Shown piece after piece: positions 61 through 15,419 of a stretch of DNA of 63,683 nucleotides. Source of the stretch: Pseudoselenomonas ruminantium (GTDB lineage: Bacteria > Bacillota > Negativicutes > Selenomonadales > Selenomonadaceae); NCBI RefSeq assembly GCF_900142515.1, contig NZ_FRBC01000021.1, forward strand, positions 1-63,683, in the 5' to 3' direction. Numbering within the stretch: position 1 is the first letter of the stretch; each line of letters begins with the position of its first letter. The notes beneath the pieces were generated by a model. The model ran no database searches. It was not told the origin of the DNA and saw only the letters and a list, made by a program, of their open reading frames with translations. The position numbers and the translations under genes are program-made.

Positions 61-149
61 TATAAGGGGGCGTGTTATTTCACAGCTCCTTTTTTGTATT
101 TTTGGGGATGCAGGAGAATTTGTGTTAAAATAGAGCGGGAGGTGGTGTT

Positions 150-1520
150 ATGGTTAGTGATCTGCAGGAGGCCACAGCGTTCAAGGCCCAGCAGAAATTT
201 CGGTTGAAACCCACCCAGACAATCCTGCTCAGTTTCGTGTTGATGATTGGCATCGGGACCGTGTTGTTGATGCTGCCGGTCAGTACCACGAATCATGCGG
301 GGCTGCCCTTTATGGACGCGTTGTTTGTGTCCACCTCAGCGTCCTGTGTTACAGGGCTGACGGTGGTTGATGTGCAGAACGATTTGAGTTTTTTCGGCAA
401 ATGTGTGCTGCTGCTCCTGATTCAGGTCGGAGGGCTGGGCATCATGACGCTGGCTACCATGGTGGCGCATGCTATGGGGTACAGGTTCCCGTTGAAGCAG
501 AGCATTATCGTGCAGGAGTCACTGAGCCAGAGCGGCCGCGCCGGGCTCTTTGCCCTGATTCGCCGGATGATTTTCTATACGTTCATGGTGGAGGGCTTCT
601 TTGCCCTGCTGCTGACGGTGCATTTTTATCCCGAATTCGGCTGGGAGGCCATTGGCTATGGAATCTTTCATGCCGTGTCCGCTTTCTGCAATGCGGGGTT
701 CGATTTATTTGGCAACTATGACAGCCTGTGCAAGCGGGCGGATGATTTTGTCCTGCTGGCTGGAATCGGCCTGCCCATCATTTTGGGTGGTATTGGCTTC
801 ACGGTTATATATGATGTGCTTCATTGCCGCAGCTGGCGGCAGTATTCGCTGCATACGAAAATCGTATTGGTCAGCAATCTTGTCCTGCTTACAGTCGGTA
901 CGCTGTTGATCTGGGCGCTGGAAGCCAATAACGGGGGCACGCTGGCGGATGTGCCTGTGGCGGGACAGCTGGCCCAGTCGGCGTTCATGTCGGTGTCCTG
1001 CCGGACGGCGGGATTCAATACTTTTGATTTGGCAAAGGCGACACAGATCACCCAGCTCATCATGATCATCCTGATGTTTATAGGCGCCTCGCCGTTGTCT
1101 ACGGGCGGCGGCATCAAGAGCACGACCATGTTTGTGATCATGCGCTCAGTCTGGGCGGTGTTCCGCGGGGAGAGTGAACTGGTCGTTTTCGGCCGCACTA
1201 TCACCAAGGATTTGCGTGATCAGGCTTTTGCGACCTTTACAGTTGGTACTATCTGGGTGGTGATTATGGGGATGCTTCTCTCGGTGCTGGACGGGGAAGT
1301 CCATGAGTTGGAGGAAGTAATCTTTGAAACCGTGTCGGCTTTTGGCACTGTGGGCATGGGCATTGGCCTCACGCTCAGCTGGAATGACTGGGGCAAGGGC
1401 CTGCTGGCGCTGACCATGCTGCTCGGCAGAGTGGGCATCATGTCCTTTATGTTGTCCTTTATCAAGCAGAAGCAGTCTGCGGTCATCAAATATCCGGAAG
1501 AAGAAATCATGCTGGGTTAA
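150..1520 (+). CDS. ktrB: TrkH/KtrB-family potassium channel subunit
   Basis: Membrane subunit of a Trk/Ktr potassium uptake system. All four pore-loop repeats of the family are visible: SASCVTGLT (63-71), SAFCNAGFD (177-185), SCRTAGFN (283-290) and SAFGTVGMG (396-404), each with the filter glycine, between hydrophobic helices. At 456 aa it matches KtrB rather than the longer TrkH of enteric bacteria, and the partner encoded next is a single-RCK KtrA-like protein, which supports a Ktr-type system. The ATG at 150 follows GGGAGG. The KtrA gene starts 12 nt after the stop, so the two are co-transcribed. Ion coupling (sodium or proton) cannot be read from the sequence. Confidence 0.93.
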   Translation: MVSDLQEATAFKAQQKFRLKPTQTILLSFVLMIGIGTVLLMLPVSTTNHAGLPFMDALFVSTSASCVTGLTVVDVQNDLSFFGKCVLLLLIQVGGLGIMTLATMVAHAMGYRFPLKQSIIVQESLSQSGRAGLFALIRRMIFYTFMVEGFFALLLTVHFYPEFGWEAIGYGIFHAVSAFCNAGFDLFGNYDSLCKRADDFVLLAGIGLPIILGGIGFTVIYDVLHCRSWRQYSLHTKIVLVSNLVLLTVGTLLIWALEANNGGTLADVPVAGQLAQSAFMSVSCRTAGFNTFDLAKATQITQLIMIILMFIGASPLSTGGGIKSTTMFVIMRSVWAVFRGESELVVFGRTITKDLRDQAFATFTVGTIWVVIMGMLLSVLDGEVHELEEVIFETVSAFGTVGMGIGLTLSWNDWGKGLLALTMLLGRVGIMSFMLSFIKQKQSAVIKYPEEEIMLG

Positions 1521-7314: not shown

Positions 7315-9237
7315 ATGAATAAGAAATGGCAGGCCGGCGGTGTGCTGGCTGCCTTTTGTTTTGTGGAAAGTGTCTGCGCATGGGGACATGCGTCGCCACT
7401 GGAACAGGAGGTACATGAAGCTGATGAGAATTTTGCGACATTGAATGTGGCAGGGCAGGAAGCCATCCGCCACAGGGATTATGTGTTGGCGGAACATAAG
7501 TTTCGAGAAGCGCGAGCGTCGGCTTTTGCTGCGGGGCATCCCGAGTTTGTGAGGGAGATGGATGCCCGGCGGGCAGCCATGTATATAAATGATAATGAGC
7601 CAAGCCGTGCGGTGCTAATCTTAAGTCCCTATATCAAACCTGGCGTAGATAAATATATGCTTAGCGACTACCTTTTGGCGTTGCGTTTGACGAATCAGCC
7701 CAAGGAAGCGGTCAAAGTATTTACGGAATACGTGCGGGACTGGCAGGATTTTCCGACATACGGTTTGCAGTCCATGGGGGATTTATACCTGCGGCAGAGG
7801 AAGTATAACAAGGCCGCTGAAGTCTATGCGCACATCTTATCCCGGGAGAAGATGGAGGATGTGCCTTATGTACAATTAGGCTATGCCCTGGCATTGGCGC
7901 GGCAGGGGAAAACTGGCAGGGCAGCAGTGGCTTATCAGAAGATGGCAAACCTGTCACCACGGTACAATAATGCCATTGCCGGGGACGGCGCGGCATTCAT
8001 TGCGGAAGGCCGTGTTGGGCTGGCTCGAAAACTGTTTGCGTCTTTGGGCATTACGGAGCATGAGCGGGAATATTGGCTGCTGCGATATGCGCAGGAGCTT
8101 GTGCAGGCGGGACAGGATTACGGCAATGATGCCGTGAATTTCAAACGGGATGAGCGTCTGGCCAATCGCAGTTATTACCATGAAGCGGCAAAGATCTTGC
8201 GGCAGCTTATCCATAGCCAGGATGAAGATATCGCCCATGAGGCCCAGGCAGCGATGGCCGTCAATAAGATGCACAATGAACTTTTGGCAGACAGCCGCAG
8301 AGGCTTGCAGGACATGCTCGACAAGGATAATGAGGATATGTTGGCATTGGCGGCAAGGGGAGAATACGAACGTCTGCAGCTGCACAATCTGAAAGCCGGA
8401 TATAGCAGCAGCCTGGACGATAAGCGGAATCGGGAACAGACAGCCAATATTGATTATGACAGCTATTGGGGCCGGAATTTTTATTTGAGTCAGGAATATG
8501 CCCGTCACTGGCTGCAGGATGATGATGACAACGTGGCTTTTGGAGAAAGTGCCACAGGTTTGCGCAAGAAATTTGTCTGGGGTGAGATTGCCGGTGAATG
8601 GATTCGCTATGATGGCGCCAGAGCCAAAAATGGCTATTCCTTATCGGTGGAATACGATTTTAACGATGTGACACATTTGGATTATCAAGTGGGCCGCCGT
8701 CTGCATGATCATGCCGGAACCGTGCGGGAAGGCATCCGCGAAAATTATCAGGAAGTATCCGTCCTCCATCAGCTGACGCCTCAGACCACTTTGCAGGGAA
8801 GCTATCAATGGGCAGATCTGACGGATCAGAATAAATATCGGGAGTATGACGCAGGCCTTGCTCATCTTTTGCAGATCAAACACAATTATAGTGACAGATT
8901 GCAGTTGAATTATAGTCATAGCAAATATAAGCGGGAAATGTGGTCCTACGATTCTCCTCAGCGGCGGGTGGAATATACGGCAGGATTCAGACGGGAATGG
9001 AATCTGCCACAGAAAGGAGTGACCTGGCAGTGGCAGTCAAATCTCAACTGGAGCCAGGACAATGATGAACGTATGGGTTTTTCACCTTATACGCGCCTGG
9101 CATATAAAAAGGAGTTTCCGCATAATCAAAGTCTGGAACTGGGTGGTACCTATCGAAAGTATTACCGACGGACAGGCCAGAATCCTCGCCGTCGTGATGG
9201 TTATGCATTGGATATCAGCTATAATTGGGGGTGGTGA
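7315..9237 (+). CDS. pgaA: PgaA-like outer-membrane exporter of poly-beta-1,6-GlcNAc
   Basis: Probable outer-membrane porin that exports poly-N-acetylglucosamine. A signal peptide is present at residues 1-25 (Lys-Lys then a hydrophobic stretch, ending near AWGHA). Residues from about 30 to 330 are helical, TPR-like repeats; from about 390 to the end the chain shows alternating aromatic/polar residues typical of a beta-barrel and finishes in YALDISYNWGW, an aromatic C-terminus used for barrel assembly. At 640 aa it is shorter than E. coli PgaA (about 800). The AAGGATGG ribosome site fits ATG 7315, not ATG 7297. The identity is supported mainly by the pgaBCD genes that follow; sequence similarity alone would be weak. 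Confidence 0.85.
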   Translation: MNKKWQAGGVLAAFCFVESVCAWGHASPLEQEVHEADENFATLNVAGQEAIRHRDYVLAEHKFREARASAFAAGHPEFVREMDARRAAMYINDNEPSRAVLILSPYIKPGVDKYMLSDYLLALRLTNQPKEAVKVFTEYVRDWQDFPTYGLQSMGDLYLRQRKYNKAAEVYAHILSREKMEDVPYVQLGYALALARQGKTGRAAVAYQKMANLSPRYNNAIAGDGAAFIAEGRVGLARKLFASLGITEHEREYWLLRYAQELVQAGQDYGNDAVNFKRDERLANRSYYHEAAKILRQLIHSQDEDIAHEAQAAMAVNKMHNELLADSRRGLQDMLDKDNEDMLALAARGEYERLQLHNLKAGYSSSLDDKRNREQTANIDYDSYWGRNFYLSQEYARHWLQDDDDNVAFGESATGLRKKFVWGEIAGEWIRYDGARAKNGYSLSVEYDFNDVTHLDYQVGRRLHDHAGTVREGIRENYQEVSVLHQLTPQTTLQGSYQWADLTDQNKYREYDAGLAHLLQIKHNYSDRLQLNYSHSKYKREMWSYDSPQRRVEYTAGFRREWNLPQKGVTWQWQSNLNWSQDNDERMGFSPYTRLAYKKEFPHNQSLELGGTYRKYYRRTGQNPRRRDGYALDISYNWGW

Positions 9238-9239
9238 AG

Positions 9240-11072
9240 ATGATCAGAAAAATAATGGTGGGGCTCATATGCCTGCTCTGTCTGGGCGGGCTGATCTGGG
9301 GCCGGGCAGAAGCTGCCGTGGCAATCTTCTGCTATCATGAAGTTGACCGCGCGAATGATGATTTTGCGGTGAGTCATCAGCAGTTGGAGCAGCAGCTCAA
9401 ATACATGAAGAAACAGGGGTACCATTTTGTAAGTCTGGATGAGTATCTGCGGTATACCAAGGGGGAACTTGCTCTGCCGGAAAAGAGCGTGATGATTACA
9501 TTCGATGATGGTTATCGTTCCTTTTACACCAAGGTTTATCCGCTGCTGCAGAAGTATCAGATCCCGGGGATGCTGGCTATCGTGAGTTCCTGGACGAATC
9601 ATGAGGAGAAGCCTAATGATGTCCGGGATACGGCCTCGTGGGAGGAGCTGCGGGAGATGGAGGCAAGTGGTCTCGTAACCGTGGTATCCCATACCCATGC
9701 TATGCATAAACAGCAGGCAATCAATCCTCAGGGCGGGCGCAATGGTGTTGTAGGCAGCCATCTCTATGCGGATGGCCAGTATGAAAGCGATGCAGAATAC
9801 CAGGCGCGGATCCAGCATGATATTGATGAAGTCCAGCGGCTTTTTCAGGAAAAGCTGGGGCATAAGTCCCGGGCTATGGTGTGGCCGTATGGCATCTATA
9901 CCAAAGAAGCTGTGGATATCGCCATAGCTTCCGGCATGGAGGGCACTTTCCTGTTGGATGGTGGTGTTAATGAGCCGGGGGAAGATGCACGTATCTATGC
10001 CCGCCGCATGATCATGGAGCGGGATGTGACGACGGCTAAACTGCAGAAACTCCTGACCGTTGACCATGATGCCTGGAATACCAAGAAGCTGCGCATGGCT
10101 CAGGTGGATCTGGATAATATCTGCAGTGATGATTCGGCAGCATATGAACGCAATGTCAAGGCAATGCTGGACAACTTGCAGAGTAATAATATCAATGTAG
10201 TGGCACTGCAGGCCTTTGCTGACCCGGATGGGGATGGCAATGTGGAAAAGGTGTACTTCAAGAATCGTGAAATCCCGGTGGAAGCGGATATCTTCAATGA
10301 TGTGGCCAACCGTCTGGAGCAGCAGGGATTCACCGTGCTGGCTTGGCTGCCGGTGTTGAATTATCAGGATTTCATCAAGGATGATAACAGCAATGCGGTG
10401 AAATCCAGGGGGGAAAAGGGCTGGTATCATCGTTTGAGCCCCTTTGCCGTGGAGGATCTGCAAAAGGTCAATGGCCTGTTCTACGACTTGGCGGCCAACA
10501 CGCAGATAGATGGCGTCTTGTTGCAGGATGATCTGTACCTGAATCAGGACGAGGATGTATCCCAGCCCGCACAAACGGCATACCGGGAGCAGTTCGGGCA
10601 GGATTTGCTGACAGCAGTCAAGGATAAGAAACAGCAGCCGGCAATCACCCGTTGGAAGATAGCAGCTTTGGACAAAGCTGCTGATGATGCGCTGGCGGCT
10701 TTCAAGAAAGTCCGTCCGCATGCCATCGTGATGCGGGATATCTACGCTGGTGCGTTGCTTTATCCTGGGGCAGAAACGTGGCTGGGACAAAGTTATGCAG
10801 ATTATCTGCGCAAATACGATTATACGGTGGTCATGGCCTATCCGTTCATGGATAAAGAAGAGGAACCATATGAATACCTGCGGAAGGTAGCACAGGCAGT
10901 CAAAGCTGCGAATGGCACGGACAAGACCATTGTCAAGATCCAGTCCTTTGACTGGGAGGCAGATAAATGGCTGGATGCCGATGTATTTGCCAAGCAGTTG
11001 AAGACCTTGCAACGGGCAGGCATGAAGAATCTGGGGTATTATCCGCTGGGATTTTACCATTGGGAAAGATAA
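9240..11072 (+). CDS. pgaB: PgaB: poly-GlcNAc N-deacetylase with C-terminal glycoside hydrolase domain
   Basis: Periplasmic enzyme that partially deacetylates poly-beta-1,6-GlcNAc so it can leave through PgaA. A signal sequence occupies residues 1-25. The NodB-type deacetylase domain carries FDDGY (88-92, metal-binding Asp) and SHTH (150-153, metal-binding His pair). From about residue 270 onward lies the PgaB C-terminal (GH153-like) barrel with the acidic motif DGVLLQDD. At 610 aa it has the full two-domain form of E. coli PgaB rather than the single-domain IcaB of staphylococci, in line with a periplasm. The ATG at 9240 follows the pgaA stop by 2 nt; an in-frame TTG at 9225 is less likely. 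Confidence 0.93.
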   Translation: MIRKIMVGLICLLCLGGLIWGRAEAAVAIFCYHEVDRANDDFAVSHQQLEQQLKYMKKQGYHFVSLDEYLRYTKGELALPEKSVMITFDDGYRSFYTKVYPLLQKYQIPGMLAIVSSWTNHEEKPNDVRDTASWEELREMEASGLVTVVSHTHAMHKQQAINPQGGRNGVVGSHLYADGQYESDAEYQARIQHDIDEVQRLFQEKLGHKSRAMVWPYGIYTKEAVDIAIASGMEGTFLLDGGVNEPGEDARIYARRMIMERDVTTAKLQKLLTVDHDAWNTKKLRMAQVDLDNICSDDSAAYERNVKAMLDNLQSNNINVVALQAFADPDGDGNVEKVYFKNREIPVEADIFNDVANRLEQQGFTVLAWLPVLNYQDFIKDDNSNAVKSRGEKGWYHRLSPFAVEDLQKVNGLFYDLAANTQIDGVLLQDDLYLNQDEDVSQPAQTAYREQFGQDLLTAVKDKKQQPAITRWKIAALDKAADDALAAFKKVRPHAIVMRDIYAGALLYPGAETWLGQSYADYLRKYDYTVVMAYPFMDKEEEPYEYLRKVAQAVKAANGTDKTIVKIQSFDWEADKWLDADVFAKQLKTLQRAGMKNLGYYPLGFYHWER

Positions 11073-11113
11073 GGGGACGTATACAGGAATTCTCAGGGAG
11101 GAAGAATTAGGCT

Positions 11114-12379
11114 TTGATTTATACATTCATTTTGTGGTTAGCGGATTTTGTTTTCTACTATCCCGTTATCATGAGTCTGGTCTGGATGGTCGGCGGTATT
11201 TATTTTTTCTGGCGGCGGGAGAAAGGGAAGGACAAGAATCCGCCCAAGCTTGACCGGATGCCTTTGGTATCGGTGTTTATCCCGGCACACAATGAAGAAC
11301 GGGACATTGCCGATGCAGTGGACTCTATTTTTGCCAACCATTATAAGAATCTGGAAGTCATCGTGATAAATGATGCCAGCACGGATAATACGCAGGGAGT
11401 TCTGGAATCCCTGATGGGCCAGTATCCCGGGTTGAAGGTGCTGCGCATGGAAAAGAATCTGGGGAAGGCTAACGGATTGAATCTGGCATTCGCCATGAGC
11501 CATGGAGATATAATCGTTACGTTGGATGCGGATTCCATGTTGGATGAACATGCCATCGAATGGGCGGTATGGCATTTCAACCATTATCCGCGGGTAGGCG
11601 CCGTTACGGGGAATCCCAAAGTCCGCAACCGCACCAGCCTGTTGGCCAAGATCCAGACGGCTGAATATGCCAGCGTGATCGGTCTTATCAAGCGCACGCA
11701 GCGGATTATCGGCAAGGTCATGACCGTATCCGGTGTGGTGGCGGCCTGGCGGCGCACGGCCATAATCAATGCAGGGCTTTGGGATAATACGGCGATTACA
11801 GATGATATTGAAATGACCTGGCGCATGGAGACCAAGTTCTGGGATGTGCGTTATGAACCCAATATGGTTTGCTGGATGCTGGTACCGGAGACGCTCAAGG
11901 GAATCTGGGTGCAGCGGAAGCGCTGGGCGCAGGGCGGCATTGAAGTGATCCGCACTCATCTGGATGTTTGGCGGCAATGGCGGGAGCGGCGCATCTGGCC
12001 TGTGTATCTGGATTATTTCCTGGGAATTTTCTGGGCGTATGCCTTTGTGATCTGTGCCCTGTTATGGGTGGCGCGCCTGTTCTTTGATGTCACGGGCAGT
12101 GGCTATGGTGCCATGCTGCCGGATCTGGGGAATCCATTGATCAGTTGGAGAGGTTCTGTGATTTCCATGGTATGCCTGTTGCAATTCCTGGTGAGTATCT
12201 TGCTGGACTCACGTTATGATAAGAAGCTGCCGGGCATCTATTTCTGGGTGGTATGGTACCCTGTGGTCTATTGGATTTTCAATGCTTTGGCAGCAGTGGT
12301 AGCGACACCGGTCGCATTGAAGCGGGATATGACGACTACGGCAGTATGGGTCAGCCCGGATAGGGGGATGAAAGCTTGA
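11114..12379 (+). CDS. pgaC: PgaC: poly-beta-1,6-N-acetylglucosamine synthase
   Basis: Family 2 membrane glycosyltransferase that polymerises UDP-GlcNAc. Two N-terminal hydrophobic segments (about 5-35) lead into the GT-A domain with VSVFIPAHNEE (52-62), LDADS (137-141), the acceptor-site ITDDIEMTW region (228-236) and QRKRW (267-271). Three or so C-terminal membrane helices follow. The length of 421 aa matches PgaC/IcaA. The start is TTG at 11114, with GGGAGGAAGA 8-10 nt upstream; no closer ATG or GTG exists. The stop overlaps the pgaD start (TTGA). Confidence 0.95.
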   Translation: MIYTFILWLADFVFYYPVIMSLVWMVGGIYFFWRREKGKDKNPPKLDRMPLVSVFIPAHNEERDIADAVDSIFANHYKNLEVIVINDASTDNTQGVLESLMGQYPGLKVLRMEKNLGKANGLNLAFAMSHGDIIVTLDADSMLDEHAIEWAVWHFNHYPRVGAVTGNPKVRNRTSLLAKIQTAEYASVIGLIKRTQRIIGKVMTVSGVVAAWRRTAIINAGLWDNTAITDDIEMTWRMETKFWDVRYEPNMVCWMLVPETLKGIWVQRKRWAQGGIEVIRTHLDVWRQWRERRIWPVYLDYFLGIFWAYAFVICALLWVARLFFDVTGSGYGAMLPDLGNPLISWRGSVISMVCLLQFLVSILLDSRYDKKLPGIYFWVVWYPVVYWIFNALAAVVATPVALKRDMTTTAVWVSPDRGMKA

Positions 12380-12846
12380 AGCAGGAGACAAGGATGGATC
12401 GTGACGCAGTGAAAGAGCCAGTTTACGAGGCAAAGGATAAGCAGAATCGGCTGGTGAGAATAGTGGAAAAAGTTATAGCGGTCGTGGCTACGATTGCCTT
12501 ATGGGTATTTTTGGTATTGACGTTGTATCATAAGTTGTTTGTCGATGTTACGCCCAGCCTGATACGGGTATTGTGGATACTGGCCCGGTCTCTTGGGGGC
12601 GCAGTGCTGATTATGGGGGTATGGCAATCCTATAACTGGTTCCGCTTCCACAAGAAAGCCCGGCGCAAGGAGTTCAAGAGACAGAGCCTGGCGGATTTAG
12701 GCAGCCTTTATGGTATCTCTGCCCAGAATATGGAGCGGCTGCAGGAAATCCGCAGCGTGGCCGTGGTGGAATTCAAGAACCATCGTTATTACTATTGTAT
12801 TGCGGGGGAAGCTCCCATTGAAATCGGTATGCTGCGGAAGCGTTGA
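12376..12846 (+). CDS. pgaD: PgaD: small inner-membrane subunit of poly-GlcNAc synthase
   Basis: Auxiliary subunit that forms the synthase with PgaC and, in E. coli, takes part in cyclic-di-GMP activation. Two hydrophobic helices are visible (about residues 35-57 and 63-92), then a basic cytoplasmic tail. The length of 156 aa is close to E. coli PgaD (137). The TTG at 12376 overlaps the pgaC stop by 4 nt, the usual sign of translational coupling; an ATG at 12394 is an alternative. Assignment depends on position after pgaC and topology, since PgaD is poorly conserved. Confidence 0.85.
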   Translation: MKQETRMDRDAVKEPVYEAKDKQNRLVRIVEKVIAVVATIALWVFLVLTLYHKLFVDVTPSLIRVLWILARSLGGAVLIMGVWQSYNWFRFHKKARRKEFKRQSLADLGSLYGISAQNMERLQEIRSVAVVEFKNHRYYYCIAGEAPIEIGMLRKR

Positions 12847-12952: not shown

Positions 12953-12981
12953 TTGCGAAAAGGAGTGGAATTTGCTACAAT
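12953..12981 (+). promoter_or_regulatory. Promoter of nrdD
   Basis: TTGCGA (12953-12958), 17-bp spacer, TACAAT (12976-12981). The -10 box overlaps the first NrdR-like box, so repressor binding would block polymerase directly. Confidence 0.75.
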
Positions 12982-13017
12982 ATATACCGTTACGACAAGT
13001 GTTAACCACAATATATA
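12977..13017 (+). promoter_or_regulatory. Two NrdR-like boxes upstream of nrdD
   Basis: The sequence ACAATATATA occurs twice, at 12977-12986 and 13008-13017, exactly 31 bp apart (three helical turns). It matches the known NrdR consensus core (ACAcwAtATaTwGTGT), and two boxes in phase on the helix are the usual NrdR arrangement. NrdR represses ribonucleotide reductase genes when dATP is high; the nrdR gene is not in this window. Confidence 0.8.
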
Positions 13018-13062: not shown

Positions 13063-15324
13063 ATGAATTTAAAAACTGTTACGAAGCGTTCCGGGCATAC
13101 GGTGCCTTATAATCGCGAGAAAATCTATAATGCTATTGCTGGTGCCAATAATGATGGCGGCCACAAGATGACGGAAAAGGATATCGATGAAGTGACCAGC
13201 CAGGTGGAATGGGATATCCAGGACCGTGAAAACGTCAGCGTGGAGGATATCCAGGATATCGTAGAGCAGGAACTGATGAAATATGATTTCTACGATATTG
13301 CTAAGAAATACATCACGTATCGTCAGAAGCACGCTGAACGGCGTACGGCGCAGAAACATCTCATGTCTGCCTATAAGGACATCTTTTTTGCTGATGCCGT
13401 GGATGTAGATTCCAAGCGCGACAATGCCAATATCAATACGGACGCATCCATGGGCATCATGCTGAAGCTCGGTGCTGAAGGTGCCAAGCACTTTGTGGAT
13501 AATTATGTTCTCACGGATGAATTCCGCGAGGCTGATAAGGAAAATTGGATTCATATCCATGATAAGGATTTTTCCCTGATCACCTTTAACTGCTGTCAGA
13601 TCGATCTGCTGAAGTTGTTCCATGGTGGTTTTTCCACAGGACATGGCTTCCTGCGCGAGCCGAACTCAATCCGTTCGTATGCATCCCTCGCGGCGATTGC
13701 CATCCAGTCCAATCAGAATGATATGTTTGGCGGTCAGTCTATCAATGCCTTTGACTATGCTATGGCAGAAGGGGTGCGCAAGTCCTTCTGCAAGGCGGTT
13801 ATTGCTGAAGCCCATAAGGCTTTGATGTATCAGTTCGATACCTATGATTTTGGCAGCGAAAAAGAATTCAAGACCTATTTCAAGCCTGCCATGAACTTTG
13901 CAGCTTGCAGCTATACGGAAAGCAAGGAAGATCCCAAGGCAGTGGAATCGATGGAGTCGATCAAGGCAGCATTGGATACGGTGCTTAATGAAACGTATCA
14001 TTTGCCCAGCGATGAAGCAGAGCGATTGGCCCGCAATGTATATCGTATGGCCTGCGCAGATGTGGAGGAAGAGACGCATCAGGCTATGGAAGCTATGATT
14101 CATAACTTCAACACCCTGCACAGCCGTGCTGGTGCGCAGGTTCCGTTCAGTTCCTTGAACTATGGCATGGACACCAGCCCAGAGGGCAGACTGGCAACCA
14201 GAGAGGTACTCAACGCCATTTGGGCCGGCCTGGGCAATGGCGAGACGCCGATTTTCCCGATTTCTGTGTTCCAGCTGAAGGCTGGGGTCAACTATAATCC
14301 GGAAGATCCCAACTATGACCTTTTCCAGCAGGCATGCAAGACCAGTGCCAAGCGTTTGTTCCCGAACTTTGTCAATATCGATGCGCCTTATAATCTGCAG
14401 TATTACAAGCCCGGCGACTATAATTCCACGGTAGCGACTATGGGATGCCGTACCCGTGTCATGAGCAATGTCAATGGCCCGGAAGAATCCGGCAGCCGCG
14501 GTAACTTTGCCTTCACGACGCTGAATCTGCCTAAGCTGGCTTTGGAAGCCAAGGGCGATATGGATAAGTTCTGGCAGCTTTTCGATAAGTATATCGATAT
14601 CAGCCACGATTATATTCTGGCTCGTCTGGCCGTCATTGAAGAGAAGCATGTCTACAATTATCCGTTCCTGATGGGACAGGGGGTTTGGATGGACAGCGAG
14701 AATTTGAAGGCGAATGACAGCATCAAGGATGTGCTGAAGCATGCTTCTTATTCCATCGGCTTCTGCGGCCTGGCAGAGTGCTTGAAGGCGCTGGTAGGCA
14801 AACATCATGGTGAAAGCGCTGAAGCACAGGAACTGGGGCTCAAGATCGTAGGTCATCTGCGCGAGCGTACCGATAAATATTCGGCAGATGAGCATATGAA
14901 CTGGACATGCTTCGGTACGCCTGCAGAATCCACCGCTGGCCAGTTCCAGCGTTCCAACCGCAAGCAGTATGGTGTAATCGAAGGCGTGACGGATAGGGAT
15001 TATATGACCAACAGCAGCCATGTGCCGGTTTACTATCCGATCAAAGCTATTGACAAGATCCGCATTGAGGCACCTTATCATGCGCTGGAAAATGCTGGTC
15101 ATATTGCCTATATTGAAATGGATGGCGATCCCACGAAGAATGTCAAGGCATTCGAACGTCTGGTACGCGCTATGCACGATGCTGATATGGGATATTTCTC
15201 CATCAATCATCCTGTAGACCGCGACCCCGTCTGTGGCTATACAGGCCTGATTGAGAACGAATGCCCGCATTGTCATCGCAAAGAAGTGGAGAGCGGTCGT
15301 TTCACGATCAAGCGTATGAAATAA
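13063..15324 (+). CDS. nrdD: Anaerobic (class III) ribonucleoside-triphosphate reductase, apparently without the glycyl-radical tail
   Basis: Makes deoxyribonucleotides without oxygen. An ATP-cone regulatory domain covers residues 1-95. The barrel follows, with FNCCQIDL near 175 and the thiyl-cysteine loop MGCRTRV. Near the C-terminus the zinc site (DPVCGYTG ... CPHC) is present, but the protein ends 16 residues after the last Cys with FTIKRMK. In characterised NrdD proteins the RRxxGYLG glycyl-radical loop lies at about this distance after the zinc site; here it is missing, and no frame downstream restores it. Start: ATG 13063 is conserved in position but lacks a good ribosome site; GTG 13048 is possible. 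No nrdG is adjacent. Confidence 0.92.
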   Translation: MNLKTVTKRSGHTVPYNREKIYNAIAGANNDGGHKMTEKDIDEVTSQVEWDIQDRENVSVEDIQDIVEQELMKYDFYDIAKKYITYRQKHAERRTAQKHLMSAYKDIFFADAVDVDSKRDNANINTDASMGIMLKLGAEGAKHFVDNYVLTDEFREADKENWIHIHDKDFSLITFNCCQIDLLKLFHGGFSTGHGFLREPNSIRSYASLAAIAIQSNQNDMFGGQSINAFDYAMAEGVRKSFCKAVIAEAHKALMYQFDTYDFGSEKEFKTYFKPAMNFAACSYTESKEDPKAVESMESIKAALDTVLNETYHLPSDEAERLARNVYRMACADVEEETHQAMEAMIHNFNTLHSRAGAQVPFSSLNYGMDTSPEGRLATREVLNAIWAGLGNGETPIFPISVFQLKAGVNYNPEDPNYDLFQQACKTSAKRLFPNFVNIDAPYNLQYYKPGDYNSTVATMGCRTRVMSNVNGPEESGSRGNFAFTTLNLPKLALEAKGDMDKFWQLFDKYIDISHDYILARLAVIEEKHVYNYPFLMGQGVWMDSENLKANDSIKDVLKHASYSIGFCGLAECLKALVGKHHGESAEAQELGLKIVGHLRERTDKYSADEHMNWTCFGTPAESTAGQFQRSNRKQYGVIEGVTDRDYMTNSSHVPVYYPIKAIDKIRIEAPYHALENAGHIAYIEMDGDPTKNVKAFERLVRAMHDADMGYFSINHPVDRDPVCGYTGLIENECPHCHRKEVESGRFTIKRMK

Positions 15325-15353: not shown

Positions 15354-15397
15354 AAGAGGTCTAATGCGAACTGTATGGGTTTGCATCAGACCTCTTT
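15354..15397. terminator. Bidirectional terminator between nrdD and the DUF4127 gene
   Basis: Arms 15354-15367 and 15383-15396 pair with one mismatch (AAGAGGTCT core), flanked by A and T runs on both sides. It serves nrdD and the convergent minus-strand operon. Confidence 0.8.
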
Positions 15398-15419
15398 CTT
15401 ACAGATATGGAATTATTGG

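What the first reader, a model, noticed from the sequence alone, without database searches (positions are those of the whole stretch)
15210..15324. Class III ribonucleotide reductase stops before the glycyl-radical loop
Seen: NrdD has the ATP cone, barrel and C-terminal zinc Cys pairs but ends 16 residues after the last Cys, with no RRxxGYLG-like motif and none in any frame before the terminator. Known: class III NrdD needs a glycyl radical shortly after the zinc site. Either the enzyme is inactive, the radical loop is supplied by a separate polypeptide, or the gene has been truncated with another reductase taking over. A separate radical spare-part, as known for pyruvate formate-lyase (YfiD), would be a new arrangement for NrdD.
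Basis: partly seen in the sequence, partly recalled or inferred. Interest (0 to 1): 0.66.

Follow-up and report, generated by a model that had tools for sequence, protein, structure and literature searches.

The report
Anaerobic reductase with separate radical subunit
This bacterium's only DNA-building-block enzyme lacks the piece that carries its essential radical, and the missing piece is made by a separate small gene elsewhere in the genome, next to the gene that charges it; other anaerobic bacteria and their viruses carry similar small genes.

Summary
The window's NrdD stops about two residues short of the radical glycine, as in 20 of 21 same-genus genomes (the 21st is cut by a contig end). 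The genome encodes the missing piece on another contig: a 94-residue protein with an unfamiliar beta-alpha-beta-beta domain and the canonical NrdD loop RIRRITGYLVGT, one base before the genome's only over-cut-off NrdG. Both unlinked units carry paired NrdR-type boxes 31 bp apart. No class I/II reductase was found in this genome, so the split enzyme should be essential. Of 60 genomes (59 relatives and this one), all 39 with a truncated NrdD have the stand-alone tail; of the other 21, 13 do. The small protein also occurs with intact NrdD in Clostridia and Coriobacteriia, with truncated NrdD in Saccharibacteria MAGs and virus records, and without any NrdD match in 43 of 50 chosen virus records (possibly fragments). 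An NrdD tree needs at least 12 changes between the two states. Best explanation: an obligate, trans-acting glycyl-radical subunit, probably derived from a spare-part protein. Biochemistry is untested; ten searches of open-licence papers found no description.

The parts
12975..12990 (+). NrdR-type box 1 (CTACAATATATACCGT)
   Evidence: 12 of 16 letters of a consensus that I recalled; paired with box 2 at 31 bp; best-scoring pair in the window at spacings 30-32. Pair geometry from passages of PMC12051234
13006..13021 (+). NrdR-type box 2 (CCACAATATATAGAGG)
   Evidence: 13 of 16 letters. A single box at up to 3 mismatches is not significant in the window (2 found, 0.68 expected, 15 of 100 shuffles as many); the pair is what counts
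13063..15324 (+). nrdD: ATP-cone, catalytic barrel and zinc region of a class III reductase, without the glycyl-radical loop
   Evidence: NF005497 E 8e-286 to 713/746, PF13597 E 1.6e-173 to 534/562, PF03477 ATP-cone; aligns with solved NrdD structures 8p23, 9d3x and 1h78
15210..15324 (+). zinc region and truncated end; the stop falls two residues before the position of the loop glycine of intact relatives
   Evidence: C-termini of relatives
15354..15400 (+). hairpin AAGAGGTCT...AGACCTCTT and T-rich stretch, likely terminator
   Evidence: read by eye; not scanned

Best explanation
The organism (Selenomonadaceae, probably Selenomonas; inferred from the named relatives) makes deoxyribonucleotides with a class III ribonucleotide reductase split into two polypeptides. 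The large one, NrdD in this window, holds the ATP-cone, the barrel with its active-site cysteine motifs and a zinc region, and ends about two residues before the position of the radical glycine. The small one, 94 aa, is encoded with nrdG on another contig. It has an N-terminal beta-alpha-beta-beta domain, presumably for docking, and a C-terminal NrdD glycyl-radical loop and tail. Proposed cycle (inferred): NrdG puts the radical on the loop of the free or docked small subunit; its tail then inserts into the NrdD barrel as the covalent domain does in ordinary NrdD; the glycyl radical makes the active-site thiyl radical and NTPs are reduced. NrdR represses both units together (inferred from boxes). 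Shown by sequence: the truncation, the separate tail, linkage to nrdG, paired boxes on both units, no other reductase found, and co-occurrence. Inferred: binding, radical formation, activity. The small protein probably began as a spare part for O2-cleaved NrdD and became obligatory in several lineages when NrdD lost its own tail.
For: Own-genome search finds one NrdD body and one stand-alone tail over cut-off; the tail ORF lies one base before nrdG and that NrdG is the only one over cut-off. No PF02867 match in this genome; 32 of the 39 genomes with truncated NrdD lack one. Co-occurrence: 39 of 39 genomes with truncated NrdD have the tail, against 13 of the other 21. In 7 genomes (G025, 26, 27, 28, 30, 34, 36) the order is nrdD - small - nrdG. 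Paired NrdR-type boxes on both units; NrdR encoded. Purifying selection on both genes. The profile of the small family matches P. copri NrdD (8p23) across its ITGYL loop at E 1.1e-12. A read-through AF2 model of an in-frame pair from G027 aligns with 8p2s_B over model 95..859 / chain 85..735, Z 47, rmsd 2.7 over 629 residues. At least 12 state changes on the NrdD tree, 7 forced by starred branches.
Against: No biochemical or expression data. The loop of the read-through model has pLDDT under 50 at 831-844, and its alignment held intact NrdDs, so its placement is not independent evidence. The N-domain has no recognisable relative, so docking is a guess. Many genomes keep an intact NrdD beside the small protein (24 of the 33 tail-bearing genomes), so it is not always an obligate subunit. 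Seven of the 39 genomes with truncated NrdD (G008, 17, 26, 31, 34, 36, 47) also have a class I/II match. Single NrdR-type boxes are not significant in the window, and 3 of 19 nrdD and 2 of 14 small-gene upstream regions lack a good pair. G270 has only a doubtful N-domain ORF beside a run of N, its NrdD running off a contig, and G273 has neither gene; unexplained.
Confidence: 0.92

Rival explanations
1. The small protein is only a YfiD-like repair part, and NrdD here is inactive or a relic.
For: Intact NrdD and the small protein coexist in many genomes; YfiD shows that repair in trans works for PFL (PMC8683613 passages).
Against: In the window's genome no NrdD copy has a loop to be damaged, no class I/II large subunit was found, and both genes are under strong purifying selection.
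Confidence: 0.04
2. The small protein serves another glycyl radical enzyme such as pyruvate formate-lyase.
For: It resembles YfiD in plan.
Against: Its tail matches PF13597, and no PF01228 match appeared at E up to 10; the genome's one PF01228 match is in a 743-codon frame with its own loop, with a radical-SAM activase-like match close by; the small gene lies beside nrdG and has NrdR-type boxes.
Confidence: 0.02
3. Assembly error, frameshift, intein or trans-splicing hides a normal covalent NrdD.
For: Split nrdD genes, several with introns or inteins, are known in phages (PMC3653736, section 9 part 1).
Against: In the single-contig genome G011 the two genes lie 1.8 Mb apart on the contig; the split recurs with different C-termini in several lineages; the small ORF has its own start and N-domain and, in 12 of 14 cases tried, its own box pair. 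No intein-like sequence was noticed by eye; none was searched for.
Confidence: 0.02

Closest known systems
Canonical class III ribonucleotide reductase NrdD/NrdG (for example P. copri NrdD, PDB 8p23; T4 NrdD, 1h78)
   Same: Homologous barrel, ATP-cone (as in P. copri), active-site cysteine motifs, zinc region and NrdG; the loop sequence is the same type.
   Different: The radical glycine and everything after it is on another polypeptide with an extra N-domain.
YfiD (GrcA) of E. coli and Y06I of phage T4, autonomous glycyl radical cofactors of pyruvate formate-lyase
   Same: [quoted passage not shown] phages carry it too (PMC8683613 passages).
   Different: Different family (NrdD tail, not PF01228), different enzyme, and apparently obligate in this lineage rather than a repair part for O2-cleaved enzyme.
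Split class II reductase NrdJa/NrdJb
   Same: A reductase divided into two chains.
   Different: B12 enzyme; [quoted passage not shown]
Phage split nrdD genes
   Same: nrdD in pieces.
   Different: In the part read (PMC3653736 section 9, part 1 of 2) the nrdD cases are an intron in T-even phages and an unexplained fragmentation in phiAS4; no added N-domain or trans radical subunit is described there. The paper counts 6 cases; I did not read all of them.
Class I reductase R2 subunit (recalled)
   Same: The radical is made on a separate small subunit (works like it in plan).
   Different: No homology seen; metal-based radical made with oxygen.

Membership tests
Class III ribonucleotide reductase (NrdD) | Homologous catalytic barrel with NrdD family match over cut-off | tested here: met
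   NF005497 950 bits (cut-off 764), PF13597 579 bits (cut-off 26.2)
Class III ribonucleotide reductase (NrdD) | Active-site cysteine motifs (NCCQID at 176, MGCRTRV at 460) | tested here: met
   Aligned with solved NrdD chains including 8p23 and T4 NrdD; roles of the residues recalled
Class III ribonucleotide reductase (NrdD) | C-terminal four-Cys zinc site | tested here: inconclusive
   Three Cys and an Asp; intact relatives share the Asp
Class III ribonucleotide reductase (NrdD) | Radical glycine in a C-terminal loop of the same polypeptide | tested here: not met
   Ends at PF13597 534/562; loop encoded on another contig
Class III ribonucleotide reductase (NrdD) | Dedicated radical-SAM activase NrdG | tested here: met
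   TIGR02491 154 bits, over the 126.1 cut-off, directly after the small gene
YfiD/GrcA autonomous glycyl radical cofactor | Small stand-alone protein carrying a glycyl-radical loop | tested here: met
   94 aa; R.RR.TGYL invariant in 132 aligned members
YfiD/GrcA autonomous glycyl radical cofactor | Gly_radical domain PF01228 | tested here: not met
   Only PF13597 over cut-off, no PF01228 at E up to 10
YfiD/GrcA autonomous glycyl radical cofactor | Restores O2-cleaved enzyme after activation | not testable with these tools
   needs biochemistry

The most novel reading that the evidence does not exclude
NrdD has its own family of trans-acting glycyl-radical proteins, spread over several bacterial phyla and phages. 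Where NrdD is intact it works as a spare part after oxygen damage; in several lineages NrdD has lost its own loop and the spare part became an obligate subunit; and phages carry the radical subunit alone to boost or repair the host's NrdD during infection. NrdD would then be the second glycyl radical enzyme with a spare part, and the first to depend on one permanently.
Probability: 0.6. Interest if true: 0.9.

Novelty: new variant of a known kind. Interest (0 to 1): 0.82.

Why it matters
Ribonucleotide reductase is essential, and the covalent glycyl-radical domain is treated as a standard part of class III. Here the radical would be carried by a removable subunit, so activation by NrdG could be studied on a small protein without a domain having to flip out of the barrel. 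It bears on a suggestion in the YfiD work that spare parts may exist for other glycyl radical enzymes (PMC8683613 passages), offers several apparent steps from repair part to subunit, and suggests a new phage auxiliary gene. It also warns annotators: among Pfam and NCBIfam models the small gene is matched significantly only by NrdD models, and its NrdD looks merely truncated.

Tried and rejected
Origin of the N-domain in NrdD itself: hhalign of the N-domain profile against whole NrdD and 13 segments gave nothing (best probability 0.2%). Its fold: Foldseek gave no match at E<=0.001; VIA-align's best was Z 4.7 (ToxR periplasmic domain), then ribosome hibernation factors; taken as non-specific. 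Among 132 members all match NrdD models in Pfam and NCBIfam; scattered weak hits (for example PF04696 in 19 members) were judged chance.

Named phage and plasmid collections: 11 phage records matched the small protein (2 cover at least 80% of it, both unannotated faecal phage records); 22 plasmid records matched but none covers 80%, and the listed ones match only the tail, as intact NrdDs do.

The column 'NrdDB' used a query from a wrong reading frame and is ignored. My first intact/truncated labels were wrong for a few sequences (GYIG and VVGYL types; L035 and L251); the tree used corrected labels. A wider class survey (160 genomes) and a family survey (71 genomes) had capped lists, so I count; I use only for G142 and G172 (intact NrdD, single match), G270 and G273.

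An exact-pattern search for the first box of the small gene found that site and one other with a mismatch; its backward control gave as many hits, so it carries no weight.

Paper searches: ten, full text of open-licence PMC papers; subscription papers are mostly not covered. I saw listings, 'find' passages of PMC9531940, PMC9669993, PMC8683613, PMC4390871, PMC11528403, PMC12288474, PMC11226230, PMC12051234, PMC12662201 and PMC3653736, and part 1 of 2 of section 9 of the last. None of what I saw describes a separate NrdD radical polypeptide; the claim goes no further.

Full report
WHAT IS IN THE WINDOW. The window is a whole contig (G000:C15) of a 3.12 Mb genome, 99.98% complete. Its nrdD runs 13063-15324 (+). 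It matches NCBIfam NF005497 (950 bits) but stops at 713 of 746, and Pfam PF13597 stops at 534 of 562. The C-terminus is ...DRDPVCGYTGLIENECPHCHRKEVESGRFTIKRMK*: 16 residues after the last Cys. In the intact relative L008 (G032) the loop glycine is the 18th residue after that Cys, so the stop falls two residues short of it. In the closest solved enzyme, P. copri NrdD, the radical glycine is Gly711 in a domain spanning 676-739 (PMC11226230 passages). The NCCQID and MGCRTRV motifs align with solved NrdDs.

THE MISSING PIECE. A search of the same genome with PF13597 gave two matches over cut-off: the window's body (1-534) and a stand-alone tail (532-562) at G000:C34:57390-57488; five weaker ones (E 0.03-0.4, positions 485-532) were set aside. 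The ORF (L002:1330-1614, 94 codons from the second of two adjacent ATGs; a GTG 12 bases further up is possible) reads MVNDVAVTIDGLSDVTEAEIAQYIGYVEEQTNEKLNELTLTPAADGQIHLDYVLQPQKFERIRRITGYLVGTIDRWNDAKKAEEHDRVKHTVMH. NrdG starts one base after its stop codon. That NrdG (154 bits) is the only one over cut-off in the genome. The one PF01228 match is in a 743-codon frame, so no YfiD-like small protein was found. No class I or II large subunit: 0 PF02867 matches in G000.

CO-OCCURRENCE. One search covered 60 genomes (59 relatives and G000). I classed NrdD by where the profile match ends. Same family (37 with G000): 35 have a truncated NrdD (end at 529-540) and 35 of 35 have the stand-alone tail; one of them, G031, also has a full-length NrdD of another type; G016's NrdD is cut by a contig end (it has the tail); G032 has an intact NrdD and no tail. 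Other families of the class (23): 4 have a truncated NrdD (G044, G047, G048, G056), all 4 with a tail; of 19 without one, 12 have a tail and 7 do not (G039, 41, 49, 50, 54, 55, 59). In sum 39 of 39 with truncated NrdD, and 13 of the other 21. Three of the tails (G038, G046, G047) are below Pfam's cut-off (24.6-25.4 bits against 26.2), but the fetched ORFs have the RRITGYL loop. These genomes share ancestry, so I give no p-value. 32 of the 39 have no PF02867 match; 7 have one. In the single-contig genome G011 the two genes are 1.8 Mb apart on the contig. Of 41 loci around small genes, 20 have a NrdG match in the stretch held (20 of the 23 from the window's family; 0 of the 18 from other families), and in 7 the order is nrdD - small - nrdG.

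BEYOND THE FAMILY. In 77 of the 80 loci the loop lies in a frame of at most 421 codons; three (L145, L152, L157) are intact NrdDs. The titles name Clostridia, Erysipelotrichaceae, Coriobacteriia (Adlercreutzia, Raoultibacter, Enterorhabdus), Verrucomicrobia MAGs and Saccharibacteria MAGs (proteins). I searched the genomes of 36 of the 80 loci (35 held). 33 of 35 have a stand-alone tail; of the 33, 9 have only truncated NrdD (G060, 61, 62, 63, 87, 88, 89, 92, 93), 2 have both kinds (G078, G091), and 22 have only an intact NrdD end, counting partial ones at contig ends (G066, G079) and leaving G075's second NrdD (end 553) unclassed. The loci were chosen because they carry a tail, so this is no frequency. 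G087, G089 and G092 are the Saccharibacteria MAGs; contamination is possible, though three agree.

VIRUSES. 80 viral loci were kept. I searched the whole records of 50 of the 80: 7 carry a truncated NrdD and a tail; 43 carry a tail and no NrdD body match (one, G257, below cut-off). The choice was not random: the 30 left out include 4 already seen with an intact NrdD (L222, L224, L225, L233) and 4 with a truncated one (L186, L193, L195, L228). Records may be fragments. L160 carries the small gene among ParA, ParB, HNH and terminase matches. The second small gene of G017 (L042) has the same ParA - ParB - small order, and L044 in G020 looks alike by ORF sizes and starts, so these are probably prophage copies.

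EVOLUTION. In a tree of 87 NrdD bodies (48 truncated, 39 intact; tails cut off, ATP-cone cut off only where my pattern found its end) the two states need at least 12 changes, 7 of them forced by starred branches (quick method, SH-aLRT only; several long-branch warnings; the count cannot tell loss from gain; paralogues included). The truncated ends differ by lineage (...IIPRMCCSNA...FTIKRMK...SERILRIRR...PFEKLCNCAKGK...AQVRRVKKA), which fits repeated loss better than one ancient split. G032, and G142 and G172 with a single full-length match, are intact members inside the mostly truncated family: a regain, a transfer or a retained ancestor.

REGULATION. NrdR binds pairs of 16-bp boxes, with 14-17 or 24-27 bp spacers (PMC12051234 passages). 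With a consensus that I recalled, the window has a pair at 12975 and 13006 (31 bp, 15-bp spacer) before nrdD; at a summed score of 24 or more and spacings 30-32 the window holds only this pair and one that shares its second box. L002 has a pair at 1196 and 1227 before the small gene. Single boxes: 2 in the window where 0.68 are expected (not significant); 1 in L002 where 0.02 are expected. Of 14 small-gene upstream regions tried, 12 had a pair reached by at most 1 of 300 shuffles; the two probable prophage copies did not. Of 19 nrdD regions tried (of 87 bodies), 16 had a pair reached by at most 3 of 300; L248, L252 and L253 did not (single-base shuffles, a weak control). NrdR is encoded.

SELECTION AND STRUCTURE. 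dN/dS of the small gene against five relatives is 0.024-0.053, of nrdD against one 0.033 (synonymous changes near saturation in some). In 132 small proteins R61, R63, R64, T66, G67, Y68, L69, K80, E83, R87 and H90 are invariant. AF2 gives the N-domain (1-60) block means of pLDDT 82-90 with beta-alpha-beta-beta order and a loose tail (54-67). The N-domain has no clear relative. A read-through model of L050 (mean pLDDT 87.4) aligns with 8p2s_B from model residue 95 to 859 and chain residue 85 to 735, i.e. the tail of the small protein ends where the glycyl-radical domain ends. Because the alignment held intact NrdDs, the two chains were made one, and the loop is below pLDDT 50, this shows compatibility only.

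MECHANISM. In ordinary class III enzymes the glycyl-radical domain flips out of the core to meet NrdG (PMC12662201 passage). A separate small subunit needs no flip, which fits its place beside nrdG rather than nrdD in this genome. Binding, radical formation and turnover remain untested.

COMPARISON. It works like YfiD with PFL, and like a class I reductase in having the radical on a small subunit, but it is a member of neither: the tail is NrdD-type (PF13597). By descent NrdD is a class III reductase that fails one defining feature, the radical glycine in the same chain. I file the pair as a new variant of class III reductase.

Noticed in passing
L160:3974-4279; L042:2273-2599; L044:2129-2425: Phage-type small radical genes next to ParA/ParB genes (terminase in L160 too); the two same-genus copies (L042, L044) lack NrdR-type box pairs and come besides the nrdG-linked gene.
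   Followed up: partly
L288:1405-1737: In G270 an ORF with the N-domain but a degenerate end instead of the loop, beside a run of N; its NrdD runs off the contig. Could be an assembly artefact.
   Followed up: partly
G273: A same-family genome (96% complete, 320 contigs) in which neither NrdD nor the small gene was found.
   Followed up: no
C-termini of L029, L031, L024, L026, L034: Several truncated NrdDs end in one to three cysteines (for example ...IIPRMCCSNA); possible redox tail or metal ligands.
   Followed up: no
L258, L259, L260; L147, L151, L155: Saccharibacteria MAGs (0.7-0.9 Mb) have a truncated NrdD and an unlinked tail in a frame of 151-197 codons; the one I read (L147) has a different N-terminal sequence.
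   Followed up: partly
9225-12846: Genes upstream of nrdD that by eye look like poly-N-acetylglucosamine synthesis (deacetylase, glycosyltransferase, small membrane protein); not tested.
   Followed up: no
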